From Salvelinus alpinus (Eukaryota > Chordata > Actinopteri > Salmoniformes > Salmonidae): 64,000 bases of DNA. The notes beneath the pieces are model-generated. The model worked only from the letters and a program-made list of their open reading frames with translations. It ran no database searches and was not told the origin of the DNA. The DNA is taken from positions 15,751,867 through 15,815,866 of the forward strand of contig NC_092096.1 of the NCBI RefSeq assembly GCF_045679555.1. Direction: 5' to 3'. The translations under genes were made by a program, and so were the position numbers. This document shows positions 50,235 to 64,000 of this stretch, piece after piece; the stretch's first letter is position 1; each line of letters starts with the position of its first letter.

Positions 50235-52949
50235 TACTAACTTTATGTAGACAGAGAGAGATGAACAGTAGCACCAGGCTACTATATGTAGACAGAGAGA
50301 GATGAACAGTAGCACCAGGCTACTATATGTAGACAGAGAGAGAGATGAACAGTGGTACCAGGCTACTATATGTAGACAGAGAGATATGAACAGTAGCACC
50401 AGGCTACTATATGTAGACAGAGAGAGAGATGAACAGTAGAACCAGGCTACTATATGTAGACAGAGAGAGATGAACAGTAGCACCAGGCTACTATATGTAG
50501 ACAGAGAGAGAGATGAACAGTAGAACCAGGCTACTATATGTAGACAGAGAGAGATGAACAGTAGCACCAGGCTACTATATGTAGACAGAGAGAGAGATGA
50601 ACAGTAGCACCAGGCTACTATATGTAGACAGAGAGAGATGAACAGTAGCACCAGGCTACTATATGTAGACAGAGAGAGATGAACAGTAGCACCAGGCTAC
50701 TATATGTAGACAGAGAGAGATGAACAGTAGCACCAGGCTACTATATGTAGACAGAGAGAGATGAACAGTGGAACCAGGCTACTATATGTAGACAGAGAGA
50801 GATGAACAGTAGAACCAGGCTACTATATGTAGACAGAGAGAGAGATGAACAGTAGCACCAGGCTACTATATGTAGACAGAGAGAGAGATGAACAGTAGAA
50901 CCAGGCTACTATATGTAGACAGAGAGAGAGATGAACAGTAGCACCAGGCTACTATATGTAGACAGAGAGAGAGAGATGAACAGTAGAACCAGGCTACTAT
51001 ATGTAGACGGAGAGAGATGAACAGTAGAACCAGGCTACTATATGTAGACAGAGAGAGAGATGAACAGTAGAACCAGGCTACTATATGTAGACAGAGAGAG
51101 AGATGAACAGTAGCACCAGGCTACTATATGTAGACAGAGAGAGAGATGAACAGTAGCACCAGGCTACTATATGTAGACAGAGAGAGAGAGATGAACAGTA
51201 GAACCAGGCTACTATATGTAGACGGAGAGAGAGAGAGCGATAAACAGTGGCACCAGGCTACTATATGTGGACAGAGAGAGATGAACAGTAGAACCAGGCT
51301 ACTATATGTAGACAGAGAGAGAGATGAACAGTAGAACCAGGCTACTATATGTAGACAGAGAGAGATGAACAGTAGAACCAGGCTACTATATGTAGACGGA
51401 GAGAGAGAGATGAACAGTAGCACCAGGCTACTATATGTAGACAGAGACAGAGAGATGAACAGTAGAACCAGGCTACTATATGTAGACGGAGAGAGAGAGA
51501 GCGATAAACAGTGGCACCAGGCTACTATATGTGGACAGAGAGAGATGAACAGTAGCACCAGGCTACTATATGTAGACAGAGAGAGAGATGAACAGTAGCA
51601 CCAGGCTACTATATGTAGACAGAGAGAGATGAACAGTAGCACCAGGCTACTATATGTAGACAGAGAGAGATGAACAGTAGAACCAGGCTACTATATGTAG
51701 ACAGAGAGAGATGAACAGTAGAACCAGGCTACTATATGTAGACAGAGAGAGAGATGAACAGTAGAACCAGGCTACTATATGTAGACAGAGAGAGAGATGA
51801 ACAGTAGAACCAGGCTACTATATGTAGACAGAGAGAGAGATGAACAGTAGAACCAGGCTACTATATGTAGACAGAGAGAGAGATGAACAGTAGCACCAGG
51901 CTACTATATGTAGACAGAGAGAGATGAACAGTAGAACCAGGCTACTATATGTAGACAGAGAGAGATGAACAGTAGAACCAGGCTACTATATGTAGACAGA
52001 GAGAGAGATGAACAGTAGAACCAGGCTACTATATGTAGACAGAGAGAGAGATGAACAGTAGCACCAGGCTACTATATGTAGACAGAGAGAGAGATGAACA
52101 GTAGAACCAGGCTACTATATGTAGACAGAGAGAGAGATGAACAGTAGAACCAGGCTACTATATGTAGACAGAGAGAGATGAACAGTAGAACCAGGCTACT
52201 ATATGTAGACAGAGAGAGAGATGAACAGTAGAACCAGGCTACTATATGTAGACAGAGAGAGAGATGAACAGTAGCACCAGGCTACTATATGTAGACAGAG
52301 AGAGATGAACAGTAGCACCAGGCTACTATATGTAGACAGAGAGAGAGATGAACAGTAGCACCAGGCTACTATATGTAGACAGAGAGAGATGAACAGTAGC
52401 ACCAGGCTACTATATGTAGACAGAGAGAGATGAACAGTAGCACCAGGCTACTATATGTAGACAGAGAGAGATGAACAGTAGCACCAGGCTACTATATGTA
52501 GACAGAGAGAGAGATGAACAGTAGCACCAGGCTACTATATGTAGACAGAGAGAGATGAACAGTAGCACCAGGCTACTATATGTAGACAGAGAGAGATGAA
52601 CAGTAGCACCAGGCTACTATATGTAGACAGAGAGAGATGAACAGTAGCACCAGGCTACTATATGTAGACAGAGAGAGATGAACAGTGGCACCAGGCTACT
52701 ATATGTAGACAGAGAGAGATGAACAGTAGCACCAGGCTACTATATGTAGACAGAGAGAGATGAACAGTGGAACCAGGCTACTATATGTAGACAGAGAGAG
52801 ATGAACAGTAGAACCAGGCTACTATATGTAGACAGAGAGAGAGATGAACAGTAGCACCAGGCTACTATATGTAGACAGAGAGAGAGATGAACAGTAGAAC
52901 CAGGCTACTATATGTAGACAGAGAGAGAGATGAACAGTAGCACCAGGCT
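50235..52949. repeat. ~42-bp minisatellite, left block
   Basis: Core CCAGGCTACTATATGTAGAC with a variable (GA)n and ATGAACAGTAGAA or ATGAACAGTAGCA. Unit length is 39-47 bp depending on GA number. Interrupted on the right by the BEL/Pao element. Confidence 0.96.
52945..52949. other. Target-site duplication, left
   Basis: AGGCT, part of the minisatellite unit, repeated at 59411-59415 on the other side of the insertion. Confidence 0.8.
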
Positions 52950-53742
52950 TATTCTGCCCTTGAGTTGCGTTCCCATGCAAAACTAGACAGATAGCTAACA
53001 ACTAAGTCTTCAATAAAACTCCCAAGGCGTAACTTTTCTTGAATGAATATATTGTAAACGTTTATGTTGTAAAACTGCAAAACACAGAAAAGAATATACT
53101 TTAGTATTCAATTCACACCAACATACTGTAGCTGTACATTATACATTTGAAGTTGCATGAATACAAAGCACGTGCTACGGTACCATGCATCTGGCATGAT
53201 GCCAAACCATATAGCTAATTGCTTTCTCATATGGTAATTGACTAACTCCTTTCATTACTCTAATAATGTACAACCATCTATGTAGAATAACAAGGCATAT
53301 TACACTAGAAACAGTAACAAAAATACAGTATTGTATATTTTACAATTCGTTTGCATGACGCACGAGCAAAGTAATACAGCTAACATCATACATGAAAGGC
53401 ATTGCAATTTGTGAGTAAATGCAACCAACCAACATTGATATGTAAGAAACTCTATCAATAACAAGATTATCATCATTAGCTAAATGCTTGAATCGAACTT
53501 ACAAACAAATATTTTCCAAGGCTGAAGCGTGACAAGAAATAACTAAACTGAAAGACCTGCACCGTAGCGTTGTTTTTAGCTGCTTCTAAGCGTGCAGAAC
53601 GAATTCTCTACTTCCTGTTTGTGTACACTCTAAGTACCAGAAAGCTCCACTAGGGGGCAAATAACATCATGGAACACAATGAAAATCCATTTTAACTATT
53701 GTAATAAAATAATCTGTTACCTTCTAACAGGATGGCAGCACA
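52950..53742 (-). mobile_element. BEL/Pao 3' LTR (793 bp)
   Basis: In element orientation it starts TGTGCTGCCATCC and ends AAGGGCAGAATA. Reading line by line, it is identical to 58618-59410, so the insertion is recent. Confidence 0.93.
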
Positions 53743-53752
53743 CTCCCCGCCT
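53743..53752 (-). other. Polypurine tract
   Basis: AGGCGGGGAG on the minus strand, directly before the 3' LTR; the usual primer for plus-strand DNA synthesis. Confidence 0.75.
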
Positions 53753-53831
53753 GGTATAATGAAATTGTGCCACTATGAAATAAAACATATCAAGAAACAA
53801 ATAATGTCCTTTCTATTATTATCTTTTGTCT

Positions 53832-53930
53832 CTAGGATGCTTCAGAAAGAAGAACAACAATCTCTGAGATTGGTCTCAGAAACACCTTAGCAGCTCCTTG
53901 CTTGACAATGTTTAGTTCTACTTTCCTAAC
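53832..53930 (-). pseudogene. Residual C-terminus of the BEL/Pao integrase region
   Basis: In a different frame from the main ORF, and overlapping its last codons, the minus strand reads VRKVELNIVKQG then VFLRPISEIVVLLSE and a stop at 53832. This is the usual end of the BEL/Pao polyprotein after the integrase. The ~300-400 residues that should precede it are absent. Confidence 0.7.
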
Positions 53931-56900
53931 CTTTTTGTCAGTACTGGGAAAGGTTTTTTGAGTGTACTTTGTTTTGGGAACTCTTTTCCTTTTTCAAGGC
54001 ATTTGAATTCTTCTCTGAAGGCTTCATGTTGCACACAGTGAATGATTGCTGTTTTGGCTTGTGACAACTCACTTGTACCGCATGGTTTATTACAGTCATG
54101 CCAGCCTCTGCAGCTGGTGTTGTCCGCACCTTCATGGAAGGATCTGGCAACATGAATGAGTCGTGCTGTGGCTCGATTGAGAGCTTTCCAGCTTGAGAAC
54201 CTCTCAAAGCGATGAGAGCCGAGTTGAGCTCCAGAAACCTTAGAGGCGAAGACAGTGACGTCTGGTCGAATCTCTGCGTCTGCGTGAGGCTCTACAAGGT
54301 CAAAATTTATGTTCTCAGGCTCACTTGAGTTTGTTTGGGTCAGGAAAGGTGGACCTGAGAACCAACTGGTGTACTTTAAGAGCGCAGCAAGTATAGGCCT
54401 GGTTGCATGGTCTGCTGGATTGCTGTCAGTGTTTACATAACACCACTGATCTGGATGGGTAGACTTCCTGATGCGAGTTACCCTATTGGCAACATACACA
54501 TAGAATCTTTTGGTGACATTGCGGATGTAACCGAGAACTATCTTACTGTCTGTGTAGAACTTGGCCACATTTACATCAATGTCAATTTCGTCTCTGATCA
54601 GGTCATACATCTCAACAGCTAGCAAAGCCGCACACAGTTCTAGGCGTGGGATAGTGTGGGCCGGACGAGGGGCCAATTTTGATTTCCCCATGACAAATCC
54701 AACATGGCATTGACCTTCCGAGTCAATAACTCTCAGGTAGGCTACCGCTCCTATGGCTACTGTAGAGGCATCCGAGAAGATGTGTAGCTCTCTTCTTTGA
54801 GTGGTAGACAAGGAGACTGGGATGTAGGTCCGCTGAATATACATATGTTCCAACTCCATCAAAGAATCCTTCCACATTTTCCATTTCTCTTCTTTTTCTG
54901 GGGGAAGAGGGGCATCCCACTCACTCTGATCAGAAGAGAGTTCTCTGATTAAGGCTTTACCTTGCATTGTTATTGGAGCCACGAACCCAAGGGGGTCATA
55001 AAGACTATTCACTGTGGACAGGATGCCTCTCCGCGTAAAAGGCTTCTCATTGTGGGACACCTGGAATGAGAAGCTGTCTGTTTCCAGGTTCCAGGAAAGT
55101 CCCAGACTCCGTTGAAAGGGGAGAGGATCCACTCCTAGGTCCAGATCTTTTAAGTCTTTTGCACGGTCCTCCATAGGGAAGGCTTCCATAACTGTTTTGC
55201 TATTGGATGCAATCTTGTGTAGTTTCATGTTGGACTCCGCCAACATTGCTTGTGTTTTTCTTAGAATGTTGATAGCTTCTTCTGTTGTAGCTACTGATGT
55301 CAGCCCATCATCGACGTAGAAGTTCCTCACTACATATTGCTTGGGTTCTGATCCATGTTCCTTCTCACCCTGTAGCGCTGCTCGTCTCATGCAGTAGATG
55401 GCTACGGCTGGTGAAGGGCTGTTCCCAAATACATGGACTTTCATCCTGTACTCAGTTATGTTTCTATCTGGATTGTTGTCTTCATACCAGAGAAACCTTA
55501 AGTAATCTCTGTGATCCTCACGTACACCAAAACAGTAAAACATTTGTTGCACATCTGCTGTTAGTGCAATGCAATCCTTGCGGAAGCGCATTAGGACACC
55601 CAAGAGTGTGTTGTTTAAGTCTGGACCACTGAGCAGAACATCGTTAAGTGACACGCCTTGACACTTAGCACTGGAGTCAAATACTACTCTTATTTGTTCA
55701 GGCTTTTGTGGATGGTAAACACCAAATATGGGTAGATACCAACATTCTTTGTCTCCCTCTAGTGGCGGTGAAGGTTCGGCTTGGTCGTTATCCAGCATCT
55801 TTTGCATGAAGTCAATAAAATGACGCTTCATGTCAGGCTTTTTGTCTAAAGTCCTGCGAAGTGATGTGAGACGGTTTATGGCCTGCTCCCTGTTATTAGG
55901 AAGGCGACGTCGAGTGGGGCGAAAAGGTAGTGGAGCCACCCAGTTGTTTCCATCATCCTGGAAAACCTGTTTGTCCATAATGTCCAAAAAGGCTTTGTCC
56001 TCCACTGATGGTGCTGGTTTATCATCGTCTTGTGTTTTGTCGAACACGGAACATCCCAGGTTGTCTGTGTTCACAGTTGTGTTTGGATCTCTCGAGTGCA
56101 TTGTAGAGGGAGAGATGTGTTTCTGAGCTACACTGTTGTAGTTCTCTTTTACCTGGATGATGTCAGGGCAAGGGCTCAGATAGGATGTGCGACCATTCTG
56201 AAGTATGTTTGTCCTGAACACGTTAACATTGGCTGGTCGGTGAGCCGTTCCCAGACAGACCTCACCCACGATGACCCACCCGAGGTCGAGTCGCTGTGCA
56301 TAAGGAGTGTCGTGGGGCCCATTGATTTGCTCTCGTACCTTGTGTACCCTTAAGATGTCTCGTCCTAAGAGCAGGAGGATGGGAGCGTCTGGGTCCACAG
56401 CTGGAATTTTGTCCATAACTGGTTGCAGATGGGGATGATGATACGCAATGTCGGGGGAGGGAATCTCCGTCCTATCGTCTGGCATCATATCACACTCTAT
56501 CAGAGTAGGGAGAGATAGCTGCATGTGTCCGTCTATAGACTCCACCATGAAGTTGACGGCTCTCCTGCCTGAAGTCTCTGTTACCCCAGAACAGGTCTTC
56601 ATGGTGTATGGAGCAGAGTTGTCATTGATGTTGAAGAGATTGAAAAACTCTGTCTTGGCCAGAGATTTGTTACTCTGTTCATCAAGCACTACATACATTT
56701 TGACAGCTTTCTCTCTTTTCCCAGCCGGATAAGCTTTAACTAGGCATATTTTTGAACATGATCTTGGATTAACTGCCTCACCACAGATCTCCGTACACTT
56801 TGAGGTGACAGATAGAAGAGCATCGTCACCTTGCTCCCCGCCATGCTCTTTCTCTGCTGTAGCAGTGTCTGTATTTGAAGGGGCTGGACCTGGATGCAGA

Positions 56901-58522
56901 GCAGCAAGATGTCTGTCGCTGTCGCACTCTGAGCACTTGATTGACACCTTACAGTCTTTAGCTCTGTGCTGAGTTGACCCACAACATCGGAAACAAATTC
57001 CATTCTCTTTGAGATATGATTTGCGCTCATCTAGAGTTTTGTACCTAAACCCACAACACTTTTTAAGAGGATGAGGTTTGTTATGTATCGGGCAGTGATG
57101 GTCAGGGTTTTCAATCTTTGTCTTACTGGGTTTGGTTTGGTGGTCTGAGGGCTCAGATGACACATCGGTTTTGTATACAGTCACAGGTGTCTTGCTGCTG
57201 TACCTGGCAGGTTTCTCACTTTTCATAGACACCTGGTTAGTTGCGGTGTAGAGGGTGAAACTGGGGTCGTTTCTAGTTTTCGCCTGGTTCCTGATGAATC
57301 TCGAGAAGAACGAGAATGCTGGGAATGCTACCCGATAGTCCTCCTTGTATTTGGATCCCTGCGCAATCCATTTTTCTTGTAAACTGAATGGTAGTTTCTC
57401 TACTATAGGGTTTACCCCCCGAGATGTGTCCAGATAAGCGAGGCCTGGAAGGTACCCTTCTACTTTAGCACACTCCAGTTCGAGAAGAATGTCACCTAGT
57501 TCTCTTAGTTTGTGATTGTCTTTGTTAGCCAGTTTTGGAAAATCATCAATTTTCTTCAACAGTGCATTCTCGATCACTTCAGGTGTACCATAGCACTCTT
57601 CTAGTCGTTGCCAGACCATGTTAAGCCCTGCTGTTGCGTTGAAAATATGGACAGATCTAATTCTGTTTGCTTGCTCAGACGACTCTGCCCCTAGCCACTT
57701 GGTAATTAGATCTAACTCTTCCCTGGCTGATAAATTCAAGTCTCTGATCGCATTGAGAAAGGATGCTTTCCATGCCCAATAATTTTCAGGGCGATCATCA
57801 AACTTCAGGAGTCCGGAACTCACCATCTCACGGCGTAGGAGGTACTTGATGAGGTCTGGTGCCACTTGTGACTCAGGGACGCTTTGTGTGTGTGACTGGA
57901 AGTGGGCTTGTTTTCCATTTACACCATGCTGCTGTTCATTTCTTTTGAACGGAGAGTCTCTGCTCATGTTCTGTTGTTTGCTACTTTCTGGATTATAGTA
58001 TGTAGCTGGGTCAACACTAAGCTCTTGTTTCTCCACTTCAAATGGAAGTTCAGCAAAGTAGGGCCTAGCATGTTGTTGCACATACTCACAGGTACGCTGG
58101 ACTGGACTTAAGGGCTGTGTCCCTGTGTCTAGTTCTTTGTGAAGTTCTCTGCGTTCTGATCCTACAGCTTCTTCAAAGGCTGCAGCTTCAGCCAACGCAG
58201 CAGCAGCTGTTCTCTCAACTTGGAGAACATATAAACTTGCCTCGAGGTCAGCTTTTTGCTTCAACAAGCTGGCCTCTATTTCTGCCTTTTGTTTCATCAC
58301 AGAAGCTTCCTTCTCAGCATAGGAGACTTGTGCACGCGCTGCGTCTGCTCTGGCGCGTGCTTTGATGGCTGCAGAACTCACCGTTGAGGATCTGCTTGAC
58401 TGTTTTGATGACCTTGATCTTGTAGATTGAGACTTGGTCCCAATGTGCTGAAGAGGCTCCTCCATCTCTCTCTGTCGAACTCTTGGCTCTGGTTGTTGTA
58501 CCGTAGACTGCTGGTCTTCCAT
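53918..58522 (-). CDS. BEL/Pao retrotransposon Gag-Pol polyprotein lacking integrase
   Basis: ATG at 58520-58522 (MEDQQSTVQQ) opens 1534 codons. The annotated frame can extend to 58567 only with a non-ATG start. Order, numbered from this ATG: Ala/Glu/Lys-rich coiled coil (~53-120); gag-like DUF1759 region starting LIKYLLRREMVSSG (~224); Cys/His knuckles (CPIHNKPHPLKKC, CFRCCGSTQHRAKDC, CSEC; ~475-545); aspartyl-protease-like VVLDEQSNKSLA (~611; DEQSN in place of the DTG loop, as usual in BEL/Pao); reverse transcriptase with DVQQMF (~989) and YVDD (~1069); Pao-type RNase H with FSDAS (~1250), PRLELCAAL (~1285), FYTDSK (~1312) and NPADHATR (~1367). It ends at KRLGK where zinc-binding HHCC and integrase domains should follow. 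No internal stop. The polyprotein packages, processes and reverse-transcribes the element RNA. Confidence 0.92.
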   Translation of the reverse strand: MEDQQSTVQQPEPRVRQREMEEPLQHIGTKSQSTRSRSSKQSSRSSTVSSAAIKARARADAARAQVSYAEKEASVMKQKAEIEASLLKQKADLEASLYVLQVERTAAAALAEAAAFEEAVGSERRELHKELDTGTQPLSPVQRTCEYVQQHARPYFAELPFEVEKQELSVDPATYYNPESSKQQNMSRDSPFKRNEQQHGVNGKQAHFQSHTQSVPESQVAPDLIKYLLRREMVSSGLLKFDDRPENYWAWKASFLNAIRDLNLSAREELDLITKWLGAESSEQANRIRSVHIFNATAGLNMVWQRLEECYGTPEVIENALLKKIDDFPKLANKDNHKLRELGDILLELECAKVEGYLPGLAYLDTSRGVNPIVEKLPFSLQEKWIAQGSKYKEDYRVAFPAFSFFSRFIRNQAKTRNDPSFTLYTATNQVSMKSEKPARYSSKTPVTVYKTDVSSEPSDHQTKPSKTKIENPDHHCPIHNKPHPLKKCCGFRYKTLDERKSYLKENGICFRCCGSTQHRAKDCKVSIKCSECDSDRHLAALHPGPAPSNTDTATAEKEHGGEQGDDALLSVTSKCTEICGEAVNPRSCSKICLVKAYPAGKREKAVKMYVVLDEQSNKSLAKTEFFNLFNINDNSAPYTMKTCSGVTETSGRRAVNFMVESIDGHMQLSLPTLIECDMMPDDRTEIPSPDIAYHHPHLQPVMDKIPAVDPDAPILLLLGRDILRVHKVREQINGPHDTPYAQRLDLGWVIVGEVCLGTAHRPANVNVFRTNILQNGRTSYLSPCPDIIQVKENYNSVAQKHISPSTMHSRDPNTTVNTDNLGCSVFDKTQDDDKPAPSVEDKAFLDIMDKQVFQDDGNNWVAPLPFRPTRRRLPNNREQAINRLTSLRRTLDKKPDMKRHFIDFMQKMLDNDQAEPSPPLEGDKECWYLPIFGVYHPQKPEQIRVVFDSSAKCQGVSLNDVLLSGPDLNNTLLGVLMRFRKDCIALTADVQQMFYCFGVREDHRDYLRFLWYEDNNPDRNITEYRMKVHVFGNSPSPAVAIYCMRRAALQGEKEHGSEPKQYVVRNFYVDDGLTSVATTEEAINILRKTQAMLAESNMKLHKIASNSKTVMEAFPMEDRAKDLKDLDLGVDPLPFQRSLGLSWNLETDSFSFQVSHNEKPFTRRGILSTVNSLYDPLGFVAPITMQGKALIRELSSDQSEWDAPLPPEKEEKWKMWKDSLMELEHMYIQRTYIPVSLSTTQRRELHIFSDASTVAIGAVAYLRVIDSEGQCHVGFVMGKSKLAPRPAHTIPRLELCAALLAVEMYDLIRDEIDIDVNVAKFYTDSKIVLGYIRNVTKRFYVYVANRVTRIRKSTHPDQWCYVNTDSNPADHATRPILAALLKYTSWFSGPPFLTQTNSSEPENINFDLVEPHADAEIRPDVTVFASKVSGAQLGSHRFERFSSWKALNRATARLIHVARSFHEGADNTSCRGWHDCNKPCGTSELSQAKTAIIHCVQHEAFREEFKCLEKGKEFPKQSTLKKPFPVLTKRLGK

Positions 58523-58617
58523 AGGAACAGAGGCTTTGTTGGCTGATGAATGTAGAAACAAAACCACCGTGTGTGGTTATTCTTGAGCTTGAGCCCGCCG
58601 TGATGATGTTTTTTTAC
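58523..58617 (-). other. BEL/Pao leader between 5' LTR and ORF
   Basis: 95 nt. The primer-binding site should start next to the LTR (GTAAAAAAACATCATCACGG in element orientation). I could not match it to a tRNA by eye. Confidence 0.5.
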
Positions 58618-59410
58618 TATTCTGCCCTTGAGTTGCGTTCCCATGCAAAACTAGACAGATAGCTAACAACTAAGTCTTCAATAAAACTCCCAAGGCGTAA
58701 CTTTTCTTGAATGAATATATTGTAAACGTTTATGTTGTAAAACTGCAAAACACAGAAAAGAATATACTTTAGTATTCAATTCACACCAACATACTGTAGC
58801 TGTACATTATACATTTGAAGTTGCATGAATACAAAGCACGTGCTACGGTACCATGCATCTGGCATGATGCCAAACCATATAGCTAATTGCTTTCTCATAT
58901 GGTAATTGACTAACTCCTTTCATTACTCTAATAATGTACAACCATCTATGTAGAATAACAAGGCATATTACACTAGAAACAGTAACAAAAATACAGTATT
59001 GTATATTTTACAATTCGTTTGCATGACGCACGAGCAAAGTAATACAGCTAACATCATACATGAAAGGCATTGCAATTTGTGAGTAAATGCAACCAACCAA
59101 CATTGATATGTAAGAAACTCTATCAATAACAAGATTATCATCATTAGCTAAATGCTTGAATCGAACTTACAAACAAATATTTTCCAAGGCTGAAGCGTGA
59201 CAAGAAATAACTAAACTGAAAGACCTGCACCGTAGCGTTGTTTTTAGCTGCTTCTAAGCGTGCAGAACGAATTCTCTACTTCCTGTTTGTGTACACTCTA
59301 AGTACCAGAAAGCTCCACTAGGGGGCAAATAACATCATGGAACACAATGAAAATCCATTTTAACTATTGTAATAAAATAATCTGTTACCTTCTAACAGGA
59401 TGGCAGCACA
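58618..59410 (-). mobile_element. BEL/Pao 5' LTR (793 bp)
   Basis: Identical by eye to 52950-53742. It contains the element's promoter and polyadenylation functions by family analogy. The flank AGGCT at 59411-59415 completes the 5-bp target duplication, the size expected for BEL/Pao. Confidence 0.93.
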
Positions 59411-62400
59411 AGGCTACTATATGTAGACAGAGAGAGATGAACAGTAGCACCAGGCTACTATATGTAGACAGAGAGAGATGAACAGTAGAACCAGGCTACT
59501 ATATGTAGACAGAGAGAGATGAACAGTAGCACCAGGCTACTATATGTAGACAGAGAGAGATGAACAGTAGCACCAGGCTACTATATGTAGACAGAGAGAG
59601 ATGAACAGTAGAACCAGGCTACTATATGTAGACAGAGAGAGATGAACAGTAGCACCAGGCTACTATATGTAGACAGAGAGAGATGAACAGTAGCACCAGG
59701 CTACTATATGTAGACAGAGAGAGAGATGAACAGTGGAACCAGGCTACTATATGTAGACAGAGAGAGATGAACAGTGGAACCAGGCTACTATATGTAGACA
59801 GAGAGAGATGAACAGTAGAACCAGGCTACTATATGTAGACAGAGAGAGAGATGAACAGTAGAACCAGGCTACTATATGTAGACAGAGAGAGAGATGAACA
59901 GTAGCACCAGGGTACTATATGTAGACAGAGAGAGAGATGAACAGTAGAACCAGGCTACTATATGTAGACAGAGAGAGAGATGAACAGTAGAACCAGGCTA
60001 CTATATGTAGACAGAGAGAGAGATGAACAGTAGCACCAGGCTACTATATGTAGACAGAGAGAGAGATGAACAGTAGAACCAGGCTACTATATGTAGACAG
60101 AGAGAGATGAACAGTAGAACCAGGCTACTATATGTAGACAGAGAGAGATGAACAGTAGAACCAGGCTACTATATGTAGACAGAGAGAGAGATGAACAGTA
60201 GAACCAGGCTACTATATGTGGACAGAGAGAGATGAACAGTAGAACCAGGCTACTATATGTAGACAGAGAGAGAGATGAACAGTAGCACCAGGCTACTATA
60301 TGTAGACAGAGAGAGAGATGAACAGTGGTACCAGGCTACTATATGTAGACAGAGAGAGATGAACAGTAGCACCAGGCTACTATATGTAGACAGAGAGAGA
60401 GATGAACAGTAGAACCAGGCTACTATATGTAGACAGAGAGAGAGATGAACAGTGGTACCAGGCTACTATATGTAGACAGAGAGAGATGAACAGTGGTACC
60501 AGGCTACTATATGTAGACAGAGAGAGAGATAAACAGTGGTACCAGGCTACTATATGTAGACAGAGAGAGATAAACAGTGGTACCAGGCTACTATATGTAG
60601 ACAGAGAGAGATGAACAGTAGCACCAGGCTACTTTATGTAGACAGAGAGAGAGATGAACAGTAGAACCAGGCTACTATATGTAGACAGAGAGAGATGAAC
60701 AGTGGCACCAGGCTACTATATGTAGACAGAGAGAGAGATGAACAGTAGCACCAGGCTACTATATGTAGACAGAGAGAGAGATGAACAGTAGAACCAGGCT
60801 ACTATATGTAGACAGAGAGAGATGAACAGTGGCACCAGGCTACTATATGTAGACAGAGAGAGAGATGAACAGTAGCACCAGGCTACTATATGTAGACAGA
60901 GAGAGAGATGAACAGTAGAACCAGGCTACTATATGTAGACAGAGAGAGATGAACAGTGGCACCAGGCTACTATATGTAGACAGAGAGAGAGATGAACAGT
61001 AGCACCAGGCTACTATATGTAGACAGAGAGAGAGATGAACAGTAGCACCAGGCTACTACATGTAGACAGAGAGAGATGAACAGTAGAACCAGGCTACTAT
61101 ATGTAGACAGAGAGAGATGAACAGTAGAACCAGGCTACTATATGTAGACGGAGAGAGATGAACAGTAGAACCAGGCTACTATATGTAGAGAGAGAGAGAT
61201 GAACAGTAGCACCAGGCTACTATATGTAGACAGAGAGAGAGATGAACAGTAGAACCAGGCTACTATATGTAGACAGAGAGAGAGATGAACAGTAGAACCA
61301 GGCTACTATATGTAGACAGAGAGAGAGAGAGAGAGAGAGAGCGATAAACAGTAGCACCAGGCTACTATATGTAGACAGAGAGAGAGAGATGAACAGTAGA
61401 ACCAGGCTACTATATGTAGAGAGAGAGAGAGAGATGAACAGTAGCACCAGGCTACTATATGTAGAGAGAGAGAGAGAGATGAACAGTAGAACCAGGCTAC
61501 TATATGTAGACAGAGAGAGAGATGAACAGTAGAACCAGGCTACTATATGTAGACAGAGAGAGAGATGAACAGTAGAACCAGGCTACTATATGTAGACAGA
61601 GAGAGAGATGAACAGTAGAACCAGGCTACTATATGTAGAGAGAGAGAGATGAACAGTAGAACCAGGCTACTATATGTAGACAGAGAGAGATGAACAGTAG
61701 AACCAGGCTACTATATGTAGACAGAGAGAGATGAACAGTAGAACCAGGCTACTATATGTAGACAGAGAGAGATGAACAGTAGAACCAGGCTACTATATGT
61801 AGACGGAGAGAGAGAGATGAACAGTAGCACCAGGCTACTATATGTAGACAGAGAGAGAGAGATGAACAGTAGAACCAGGCTACTATATGTAGACGGAGAG
61901 AGAGAGAGCGATAAACAGTGGCACCAGGCTACTATATGTGGACAGAGAGAGATGAACAGTAGAACCAGGCTACTATATGTAGACAGAGAGAGAGATGAAC
62001 AGTAGAACCAGGCTACTATATGTAGACAGAGAGAGATGAACAGTAGAACCAGGCTACTATATGTAGACGGAGAGAGAGAGATGAACAGTAGCACCAGGCT
62101 ACTATATGTAGACAGAGACAGAGAGATGAACAGTAGAACCAGGCTACTATATGTAGACGGAGAGAGAGAGAGCGATAAACAGTGGCACCAGGCTACTATA
62201 TGTGGACAGAGAGAGATGAACAGTAGAACCAGGCTACTATATGTAGACAGAGAGAGAGATGAACAGTAGAACCAGGCTACTATATGTAGACAGAGAGAGA
62301 TGAACAGTAGAACCAGGCTACTATATGTAGACAGAGAGAGATGAACAGTAGAACCAGGCTACTATATGTAGACAGAGAGAGAGAGATGAACAGTGGCACC

Positions 62401-63789
62401 AGGCTACTATATGTAGAGAGAGAGAGATGAACAGTAGAACCAGGCTACTATATGTAGACAGAGAGAGAGAGATGAACAGTGGCACCAGGCTACTATATGT
62501 AGACAGAGAGAGATGAACAGTAGAACCAGGCTACTATATGTAGACAGAGAGAGAGATGAACAGTAGAACCAGGCTACTATATGTAGACAGAGAGAGAGAG
62601 AGAGAGAGAGCGATAAACAGTGGCACCAGGCTACTATATGTAGACAGAGAGAGAGAGATGAACAGTAGCACCAGGCTACTATATGTAGACAGAGAGAGAT
62701 GAACAGTAGAACCAGGCTACTATATGTAGAGAGAGAGAGATGAACAGTAGAACCAGGCTACTATATGTAGAGAGAGAGAGATGAACAGTAGAACCAGGCT
62801 ACTATATGTAGACAGAGAGAGATGAACAGTAGAACCAGGCTACTATATGTAGACAGAGAGATGAACAGTAGAACCAGGCTACTATATGTAGACGGAGAGA
62901 GAGAGAGCGATAAACAGTGGCACCAGGCTACTATATGTGGACAGAGAGAGATGAACAGTAGAACCAGGCTACTATATGTAGACAGAGAGAGAGATGAACA
63001 GTAGAACCAGGCTACTATATGTGGACAGAGAGAGATGAACAGTAGAACCAGGCTACTATATGTAGACAGAGAGAGATGAACAGTGGTACCAGGCTACTAT
63101 ATGTAGACAGAGAGAGATGAACAGTGGCACCAGGCTACTATATGTAGACAGAGAGAGAGAGATGAACAGTAGAACCAGGCTACTATATGTAGACAGAGAG
63201 AGAGATGAACAGTAGAACCAGGCTACTATATGTAGACAGAGAGAGAGAGAGAGAGAGAGCGATAAACAGTGGCACCAGGCTACTATATGTAGACAGAGAG
63301 AGAGAGATGAACAGTAGCACCAGGCTACTATATGTAGACAGAGAGAGATGAACAGTAGAACCAGGCTACTATATGTAGAGAGAGAGAGATGAACAGTAGA
63401 ACCAGGCTACTATATGTAGAGAGAGAGAGATGAACAGTAGAACCAGGCTACTATATGTAGACAGAGAGAGATGAACAGTAGAACCAGGCTACTATATGTA
63501 GACAGAGAGATGAACAGTAGAACCAGGCTACTATATGTAGACGGAGAGAGAGAGAGCGATAAACAGTGGCACCAGGCTACTATATGTGGACAGAGAGAGA
63601 TGAACAGTAGAACCAGGCTACTATATGTAGACAGAGAGAGAGATGAACAGTAGAACCAGGCTACTATATGTGGACAGAGAGAGATGAACAGTAGAACCAG
63701 GCTACTATATGTAGACAGAGAGAGATGAACAGTGGTACCAGGCTACTATATGTAGACAGAGAGAGATGAACAGTGGTACCAGGCTACTA
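59411..63789. repeat. ~42-bp minisatellite, right block
   Basis: Same unit as the left block. Higher-order repeats are visible: a 649-bp period (the (GA)n-GCGATAAACAGTGG marker at 62611 and 63260) and a 264-bp period (markers at 61909 and 62173). The latter is also present on the left side at 51239 and 51502. Frames of 60-130 codons are artefacts of the 42-bp period. Confidence 0.96.
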
Positions 63790-64000
63790 AATGATGCATA
63801 CCAGATCTTTATATACCGTTTATTCATGGAGCAACAGAGGGGTGCTAGGCTAGTGTTAGATGAGACGCTAGCCGTATTTATAATACATGACTAACCCCTT
63901 TCCCATGCCCACCAAGCCCAGCCAGACTTCCAGAGCATTCCAACAACATGGCCTGGCCAGTGTGTGTGTGTGTTTTGCAGGCGGTGCAATATCACACACT
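63790..64000. other. Unique sequence at the right edge
   Basis: No coding signal. It contains a short (TG)n and a TTTATTCATGGAGCAACAGA stretch that could be the edge of another LTR; not decidable. Confidence 0.35.

What the first reader, a model, noticed from the sequence alone, without database searches (positions are those of the whole stretch)
52945..59415. Young BEL/Pao insertion that lacks its own integrase
The two 793-bp LTRs read as identical, target duplication AGGCT is intact, the polypurine tract is present, and the 1534-codon gag-protease-RT-RNaseH frame is open. Yet the ORF stops at the point where the HHCC and integrase domains should begin, and only the last ~30 residues of the integrase region survive in another frame at 53832-53930. 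BEL/Pao elements need integrase to insert. Either this is a non-autonomous derivative mobilised by integrase from a full-length relative, or the deletion happened after a very recent insertion. A deletion-derivative family that keeps Gag and RT but borrows integrase would be unusual.
Basis: partly seen in the sequence, partly recalled or inferred. Interest (0 to 1): 0.78.

Follow-up and report, generated by a model that had tools for sequence, protein, structure and literature searches.

The report
Mobile retrotransposon family without integrase
This jumping gene lost the enzyme it needs to insert itself, yet many copies with the same loss are scattered through this genome, so it most likely spreads by borrowing the enzyme from relatives in the same genome that still have it.

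Summary
The window holds a young BEL/Pao element: identical 793-bp LTRs and an open 1534-codon Gag-to-RNaseH frame, lacking about 1.13 kb of integrase that near-identical (about 99%) relatives carry. The same junction is at 21 places in this genome. Ten of 12 two-LTR copies have matching 5-bp target duplications, all ten different; six of 12 have identical LTRs. So the deletion was inherited and amplified, not made after insertion here. Further integrase-deletion classes exist; the copies read of two of them (2 of 2 sites, 3 of 7 sites) also have their own duplications and open frames across the deletion. Only 7 of 49 internal-to-3'-LTR boundaries adjoin the whole integrase segment; at least one such copy has an open integrase frame. 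SNPs suggest exchange between the two kinds, and shared coding SNPs show constraint (dN/dS about 0.33). Best mechanism (inferred): the copies keep making Gag and RT and share integrase in mixed particles. Deletion derivatives moved in trans are known (mouse IAP IΔ1, ETn/MusD); I found no integrase-specific, repeated version in BEL/Pao in my searches.

The parts
52945..52949 (.). target-site duplication AGGCT, left copy
   Evidence: lies in an array whose units hold AGGCT
52950..53742 (-). 3' LTR (793 bp)
   Evidence: 793 of 793 identical to the other LTR
53743..53752 (-). purine-rich stretch next to the 3' LTR (polypurine-tract-like)
   Evidence: the boundary that contains it is found at 49 places with up to 3 mismatches
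53835..53936 (-). remnant of the integrase C-terminus, out of frame with the long ORF
   Evidence: nearly the same residues end the integrase frame of L039
53952..53962 (-). deletion junction: about 1.13 kb of integrase absent, A-run microhomology
   Evidence: pattern at 20 places
53918..58522 (-). open frame of 1534 codons, Gag to RNase H region, closing about 12 codons past the junction
54545..55036 (-). Peptidase_A17 (Pao) domain; DAS motif at 54764-54772
   Evidence: Pfam E 1.2e-46; motif
55214..55603 (-). reverse transcriptase region, YVDD at 55307-55318
   Evidence: RVT_1 E 6e-6, below Pfam cut-off; motif
56657..56692 (-). protease-like motif VVLDEQSNKSLA
   Evidence: no Pfam hit
56951..56995 (-). 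Cys-His (zinc-knuckle-like) motif
57485..57667 (-). DUF1759 (Gag-like) match
   Evidence: E 2e-4, below Pfam cut-off
58618..59410 (-). 5' LTR (793 bp)
59411..59415 (.). target-site duplication AGGCT, right copy
50240..52949 (.). minisatellite (41/43 bp) that took the insertion, left part
59411..63793 (.). same minisatellite, right part

Best explanation
The element is one member of an integrase-deleted BEL/Pao subfamily that has kept moving. A deletion of about 1.13 kb, most likely made by template switching at a short A-run repeat during reverse transcription, removed the integrase zinc-binding and catalytic domains, and probably arose once (SNP evidence next to the junction). Copies with this junction were then transcribed, packaged and reverse-transcribed, probably in part with Gag and RT from their own open frame, and were inserted by integrase made by integrase-bearing relatives with the same LTRs, packaged in the same particles. 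Shown: the shared junction, independent target duplications, young LTR pairs, open frames in about half of the readable copies, constraint on shared SNPs, co-resident integrase-bearing relatives, and SNP combinations that point to exchange between the two kinds. Inferred: the template switch, trans-supply of integrase, co-packaging, and use of own Gag and RT.
For: The junction is at 21 places. Ten of 12 two-LTR copies have identical 5-bp duplications, all ten different. LTR pairs differ at 0 sites in 6 of 12 copies, at 1 in 2, and at 3 to 8 in the other 4. Precise 5-bp duplications point to integrase-catalysed insertion; the integrase-bearing C6 copy has one too (ATGTT). Integrase-bearing relatives are 98.9-99.1% identical upstream of the junction, with DUF5641 (E 2e-26), rve (E 6e-6, below cut-off) and a weak H2C2 match. 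Three of 10 such stretches read stay open past the catalytic region. Single origin: at INT 4607, about 50 bases from the junction, 17 of 19 junction rows share a state seen in 0 of 10 integrase-bearing rows, and 0 of 19 junction rows have the INT 4643 allele seen in 6 of 10 integrase-bearing rows. 26 of 75 SNPs show all four junction-by-allele combinations, and L037 carries a tail identical to the window's. Shared coding SNPs: 23 synonymous, 19 nonsynonymous, 0 stops (dN/dS about 0.33); private SNPs: 24, 49 and 5 stops (about 0.8); Fisher P 0.012. Two other integrase-deleted classes have their own duplications and open frames in the copies read.
Against: No transcript, particle or mobility data. 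Eight of 15 fully readable junction copies have broken frames, two of them with identical LTRs (L010, L015), so own Gag/RT is not strictly needed. Exchange with integrase-bearing copies means that the constraint may have acted while the sequence was in them. The four-combination SNPs could also come from gene conversion, from recurrent deletion, or partly from decay in older copies; no SNP of the 75 is fixed between the two kinds. Two of 12 copies (L017, L022) gave no matching duplication.
Confidence: 0.86

Rival explanations
1. The integrase was lost after a recent insertion at this locus only (local deletion).
For: Identical LTRs and an open frame at this locus are equally expected.
Against: The same junction is at 21 places, with different duplications and unrelated flanks in the copies tested.
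Confidence: 0.01
2. The same deletion forms afresh in many reverse-transcription cycles at a hot-spot repeat, so the copies are one-cycle by-products and not a lineage.
For: All four junctions examined have 3-8 bp of microhomology, counted by eye from printed sequences. Recurrence on several backbones would also give the four-combination SNPs and the mixed placement.
Against: 17 of 19 junction rows share the INT 4607 state, seen in 0 of 10 integrase-bearing rows, and none has the INT 4643 allele of the young integrase-bearing copies. The junction letters are identical in most copies.
Confidence: 0.06
3. Junction copies are wholly passive passengers: Gag, RT and integrase all come from integrase-bearing relatives, and the open frame is only a sign of youth.
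For: Young broken copies exist (L010, L015); gag-RT of young integrase-bearing copies is nearly identical to that of young junction copies.
Against: Frames are open to the same end in the diverged junction copies L009 and L020; shared coding SNPs show constraint and no stops; two other integrase-deleted classes also keep long open frames in the copies read.
Confidence: 0.25
4. Assembly artefact: repeats were collapsed so that integrase is missing in the assembly only.
For: Runs of N lie in or next to some copies (L010, L040, L042).
Against: Twenty-one places, the fetched ones with locus-specific SNPs and flanks; several different deletion classes; integrase-bearing copies assembled in the same genome.
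Confidence: 0.02

Closest known systems
Mouse IAP IΔ1 elements
   Same: Non-autonomous deletion derivative of an LTR element, with a 1.9-kb gag-pol deletion; accounts for most IAP insertional mutations (PMC7472028, passages seen).
   Different: An endogenous retrovirus family with a gag-pol deletion; here it is BEL/Pao, the loss starts at integrase, and the Gag-RT frame is open in 7 of 15 readable copies.
Mouse ETn elements mobilised by MusD
   Same: Moved by the machinery of coding relatives (PMC7472028, passages).
   Different: [quoted passage not shown] the junction copies here keep RT.
BEL/Pao elements of animals (Suzu, Sinbad, roo)
   Same: Order Gag, protease, RT, RNase H, then integrase, as in the relatives here (Sinbad: PMC554778, passages). 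The roo paper raises the possibility that non-autonomous copies use autonomous ones (PMC3087523, passages).
   Different: No integrase-less amplified class is described in the passages I saw; here there are several.
Defective LTR retrotransposons of Culex
   Same: Truncated copies related to putatively active families; use of relatives' machinery in trans is proposed (PMC3286476, passages).
   Different: The group featured there lacks coding sequence and has no known active relative.

Membership tests
BEL/Pao LTR retrotransposons | Pao-type Peptidase_A17 domain downstream of RT in one Gag-Pol frame | tested here: met
   (E 1.2e-46); open frame
BEL/Pao LTR retrotransposons | RT domain of BEL/Pao type | tested here: inconclusive
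   RVT_1 below Pfam cut-off, YVDD present; no RT tree with named elements was built
BEL/Pao LTR retrotransposons | DUF1759-type Gag and Cys-His boxes | tested here: inconclusive
   DUF1759 E 2e-4, below cut-off; one Cys-His motif matched the patterns used, against a triple box in the Sinbad paper
BEL/Pao LTR retrotransposons | aspartic protease motif LLDxG (typical according to PMC554778) | tested here: not met
   the motif reads VVLDEQSN in 19 of the 20 rows that cover it, junction and integrase-bearing alike, and VVLDEQRN in L025. I treat this as typical and not defining, so the BEL/Pao filing rests on A17 and gene order
BEL/Pao LTR retrotransposons | integrase with zinc-binding and DDE domains | tested here: not met
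   absent from the window copy; present in relatives. The copy is a deletion derivative of the family, not an autonomous member
Non-autonomous deletion derivative moved in trans | one deletion junction shared by independent insertions | tested here: met
Non-autonomous deletion derivative moved in trans | same LTR ends as an integrase-bearing relative | tested here: met
   5' LTR of C15:36.05M identical over the 783 bases present, its 3' LTR matches at full score; 5' LTRs of C5 and C6 copies 99.7% or more
Non-autonomous deletion derivative moved in trans | a co-resident relative with an open integrase frame | tested here: met
   at least one copy
Non-autonomous deletion derivative moved in trans | mobilisation in trans shown by experiment | not testable with these tools
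   no experiment available

The most novel reading that the evidence does not exclude
In this BEL/Pao population integrase behaves as a shared good. At least four different deletions have removed it, the losers keep Gag and RT frames open and keep inserting, and they hold 32 of 41 insertion sites with this 3' boundary (arrays counted once) against 7 with the whole integrase segment. Integrase would be the one function that works freely in trans, while Gag and RT act mainly on the RNA that encoded them.
Probability: 0.4. Interest if true: 0.78.

Novelty: new variant of a known kind. Interest (0 to 1): 0.64.

Why it matters
It gives a natural experiment on which retroelement proteins act in cis and which can be shared. 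Here integrase has been lost several times in one family while Gag and RT coding was kept in many copies, and the losers outnumber the possible donors. That makes the cis-preference question in LTR retrotransposons testable from sequence, and it predicts when such a family will collapse, namely when the last integrase donor is silenced or lost.

Tried and rejected
Rejected: local loss after insertion; assembly error as the main cause; chance frame (seven copies are open to the same end).

Led nowhere: relatives in IMG/VR and in GTDB genomes gave none. Pfam on the short tail and pre-integrase pieces gave nothing useful. A PDB sequence search on the protease-like piece gave only weak zinc-knuckle hits. 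Paper search found nothing; 63 and 70 were off topic; 72 was mostly off topic but listed the paper used for IAP IΔ1. The trees of pieces P1-P3 did not separate junction from integrase-bearing copies in gag-RT; I then looked for exchange. Piece P4 had no integrase-bearing rows because those loci were cut there. The microhomology script used wrong diagonals near small indels, so its run lengths are not used and I read them from the printed letters; its deletion sizes were measured on L043, which is 13 bases short there, so I use for the window's deletion and rounded coordinates for the others. An early count of 7-9 bp microhomology for the window's junction came from L037, whose tail is junction-like; against the other relatives it is 3-5 bp. 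Against the shared-good reading: some older integrase-bearing copies have lost RT sequence instead (L046 to L051), and most integrase frames read are broken (7 of 10). Not done: an RT tree with named BEL/Pao elements, primer-site identification, structure prediction, other assemblies; the gag-piece genome search did not complete.
Full report
What is there. The window is C11:15751867-15815866 of a 2.37-Gb genome held without a name. On the minus strand at 52950-59410 lies an LTR element of 6461 bp with two identical 793-bp LTRs. Its long frame runs from ATG at 58522 to a stop at 53918, 1534 codons. Peptidase_A17 is clear (E 1.2e-46); RVT_1 and DUF1759 lie below Pfam's cut-offs. The element interrupts a minisatellite whose units carry AGGCT, so the duplication at this locus is weak evidence by itself.

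The missing part. Searching 558 bp across the suspected junction in the own genome gave 41 matches (40 of 85 candidates scored); 22 places match all 558 bp in one piece, and others match the two sides apart. Three of the latter (L037-L039) hold a segment between the two sides; the upstream flank is 98.9-99.1% and the downstream flank 98.6-100% identical to the window. From the coordinates the deletion is 1135-1137 bp. In L039 the frame runs through the segment to a tail that is the out-of-frame remnant seen in the window; it matches DUF5641, rve (below cut-off) and weakly H2C2. The segment has no match in the window or in the 21 other junction-type loci tested, L009-L028 and L030.

A family, not an accident. 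The junction 35-mer occurs at 20 places with up to 3 mismatches, 0 for the reversed control. L025 has the same junction with more mismatches, making 21; L027 and L028 have a different junction close by, which may be a separate deletion or a later change. Of the 20 stretches fetched plus the window, 12 have two LTRs that align nearly end to end; 10 of these 12 have identical 5-bp duplications, all ten different; L017 and L022 do not match. LTR pairs differ at 0 sites in six (window, L010, L012, L014, L015, L016), 1 in L020 and L021, 3 in L009, 6 in L017, 8 in L019 and L022; L017 and L020 have one gap column each, and the L022 figure includes 23 end bases that did not align. Of 31 flanks compared, only the window's two (its minisatellite) and one pair (L012 and L014, 149 bp at 92%) are alike. 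The deletion therefore came before these insertions and was copied over a range of times. I give no dates, because I have no rate for this host.

Coding state. Of 15 junction copies whose frame can be read in full, 7 are open to the same end (window, L009, L012, L014, L016, L020, L021) and 8 are broken; L018 is open as far as it was fetched. Among 14 junction copies (L011, L013, L023, L025 and L026 were left out as partial or older), SNPs shared by two or more copies are 23 synonymous, 19 nonsynonymous and 0 stops; private SNPs are 24, 49 and 5 (Fisher P 0.012; dN/dS about 0.33 and 0.8). So the replicating lineage was under constraint and copies decay after insertion. The caveat is exchange with integrase-bearing copies.

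Relation to integrase-bearing copies. In gag-RT the young integrase-bearing copies lie among young junction copies. With 19 junction rows and 7 integrase-bearing copies (the C1 and C13 clusters and L027/L028 left out), 26 of 75 biallelic SNPs show all four combinations of junction state and allele, including 2 of 2 SNPs downstream of the deletion, and none is fixed between the kinds. L037 has a tail identical to the window's. Next to the junction the picture is tree-like: at INT 4607 17 of 19 junction rows (not L025 and L026) share a state found in 0 of 10 integrase-bearing rows, and at INT 4643 an allele of 6 of 10 integrase-bearing rows is in 0 of 19 junction rows (C5:41.33M and the second C15:54.87M copy were not in this table). 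I read this as one deletion event followed by recombination, most simply template switching between RNAs packaged together. Gene conversion, or recurrent deletion, could give part of the pattern.

More integrase-deleted classes. A search with the integrase segment gave 57 matches (40 of 58 candidates scored). I classed the 49 internal-to-3'-LTR boundaries by coordinates: 21 junction copies, 2 of the L027/L028 kind, 14 with only IN 802-1130, 2 with only IN 696-1130, 1 with only IN 940-1130, 7 with the whole segment, 2 unclassified. One of the 7 (C29) has lost RT sequence. The IN696 class lacks about 0.9 kb: both copies have their own duplications (CATTT, GTGGG). The C40 copy has a continuous 1639-codon frame from ATG to the natural end; the C17 copy, read in two stretches, is open in both. 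The IN802 class lacks about 1.8 kb: the three copies fetched (of 7 sites) have duplications CTGGG, ACCAC and ACTAG, LTR differences of 4, 5 and 0, and open stretches of 1340, 1352 and 1319 codons across the deletion. It has lost most of the Peptidase_A17 region with the DAS motif as well, since its junction leaves the element at INT 3654. The IN940 class is known only from search hits. The four junctions examined have 3-8 bp microhomology by eye, as expected of template switching.

Donors. Three of 10 integrase-bearing stretches read stay open past the catalytic region, 7 close early. The C6 copy has identical LTRs and a 5-bp duplication ATGTT, so an integrase-bearing copy also inserted recently. 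Gag-RT stretches of three such copies (L040-L042) have no stop in 1383-1395 codons.

Mechanism. The best model is that junction RNAs are packaged with integrase-bearing RNAs, use Gag and RT partly of their own making, and are inserted by integrase from the relatives, which would recognise the same LTR ends. Trans-supply is inferred from integrase-type duplications on copies that cannot make integrase. Use of own Gag and RT is inferred from the open frames and the constraint, and is the weaker step because young broken copies exist.

Compared with what is known. Trans-mobilised deletion derivatives are known: ETn by MusD, and the IAP IΔ1 type with a 1.9-kb gag-pol deletion (PMC7472028, passages). 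For BEL/Pao, the roo paper suggests that non-autonomous copies may use autonomous ones (PMC3087523, passages). Searches listed no paper that I recognised, from title and start of abstract, as describing integrase-less amplified BEL/Pao; besides PMC7472028 I saw passages of five papers. The library lacks most subscription journals, so this absence is weak. I rate it a new variant of a known kind.

Noticed in passing
G000 C19:41978114-42006985 and C6:36893541-36907591: Head-to-tail arrays of the IN802-class element (six units spaced 4937 bp, three spaced 4933 bp), probably from unequal LTR recombination.
   Followed up: partly
L018 (C15:54858700-54868699): Two junction-type internal regions share an LTR, and the first holds an internal duplication.
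   Followed up: no
window 56657-56692: The protease-like motif reads LDEQSN in place of LD[ST]G, in integrase-bearing copies too; whether the protease works is open.
   Followed up: partly
L025, L027, L028: Older copies carry an LTR form lacking about LTR 241-668; in L025 the two LTRs differ in this.
   Followed up: no
L027 and L028: A second integrase junction at an AGTAC repeat close to the main one: separate deletion or later change.
   Followed up: partly
G000 C1:53.8-54.06 Mb and C13:5.19-5.21 Mb: Clusters of older copies, several 18-23 kb apart, that keep integrase sequence; the five read (L047-L051) lack part of RT.
   Followed up: no
genome-wide: 177 LTR 3' ends against 39 upstream and 49 downstream internal boundaries, each with up to 3 mismatches, so roughly half the LTRs look solo.
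   Followed up: no
window 58557-58617: No usual primer-binding site starting with TGG directly after the 5' LTR; the primer is unknown.
   Followed up: no
window 32134-63793: A very dense run of minisatellites with many different units.
   Followed up: no
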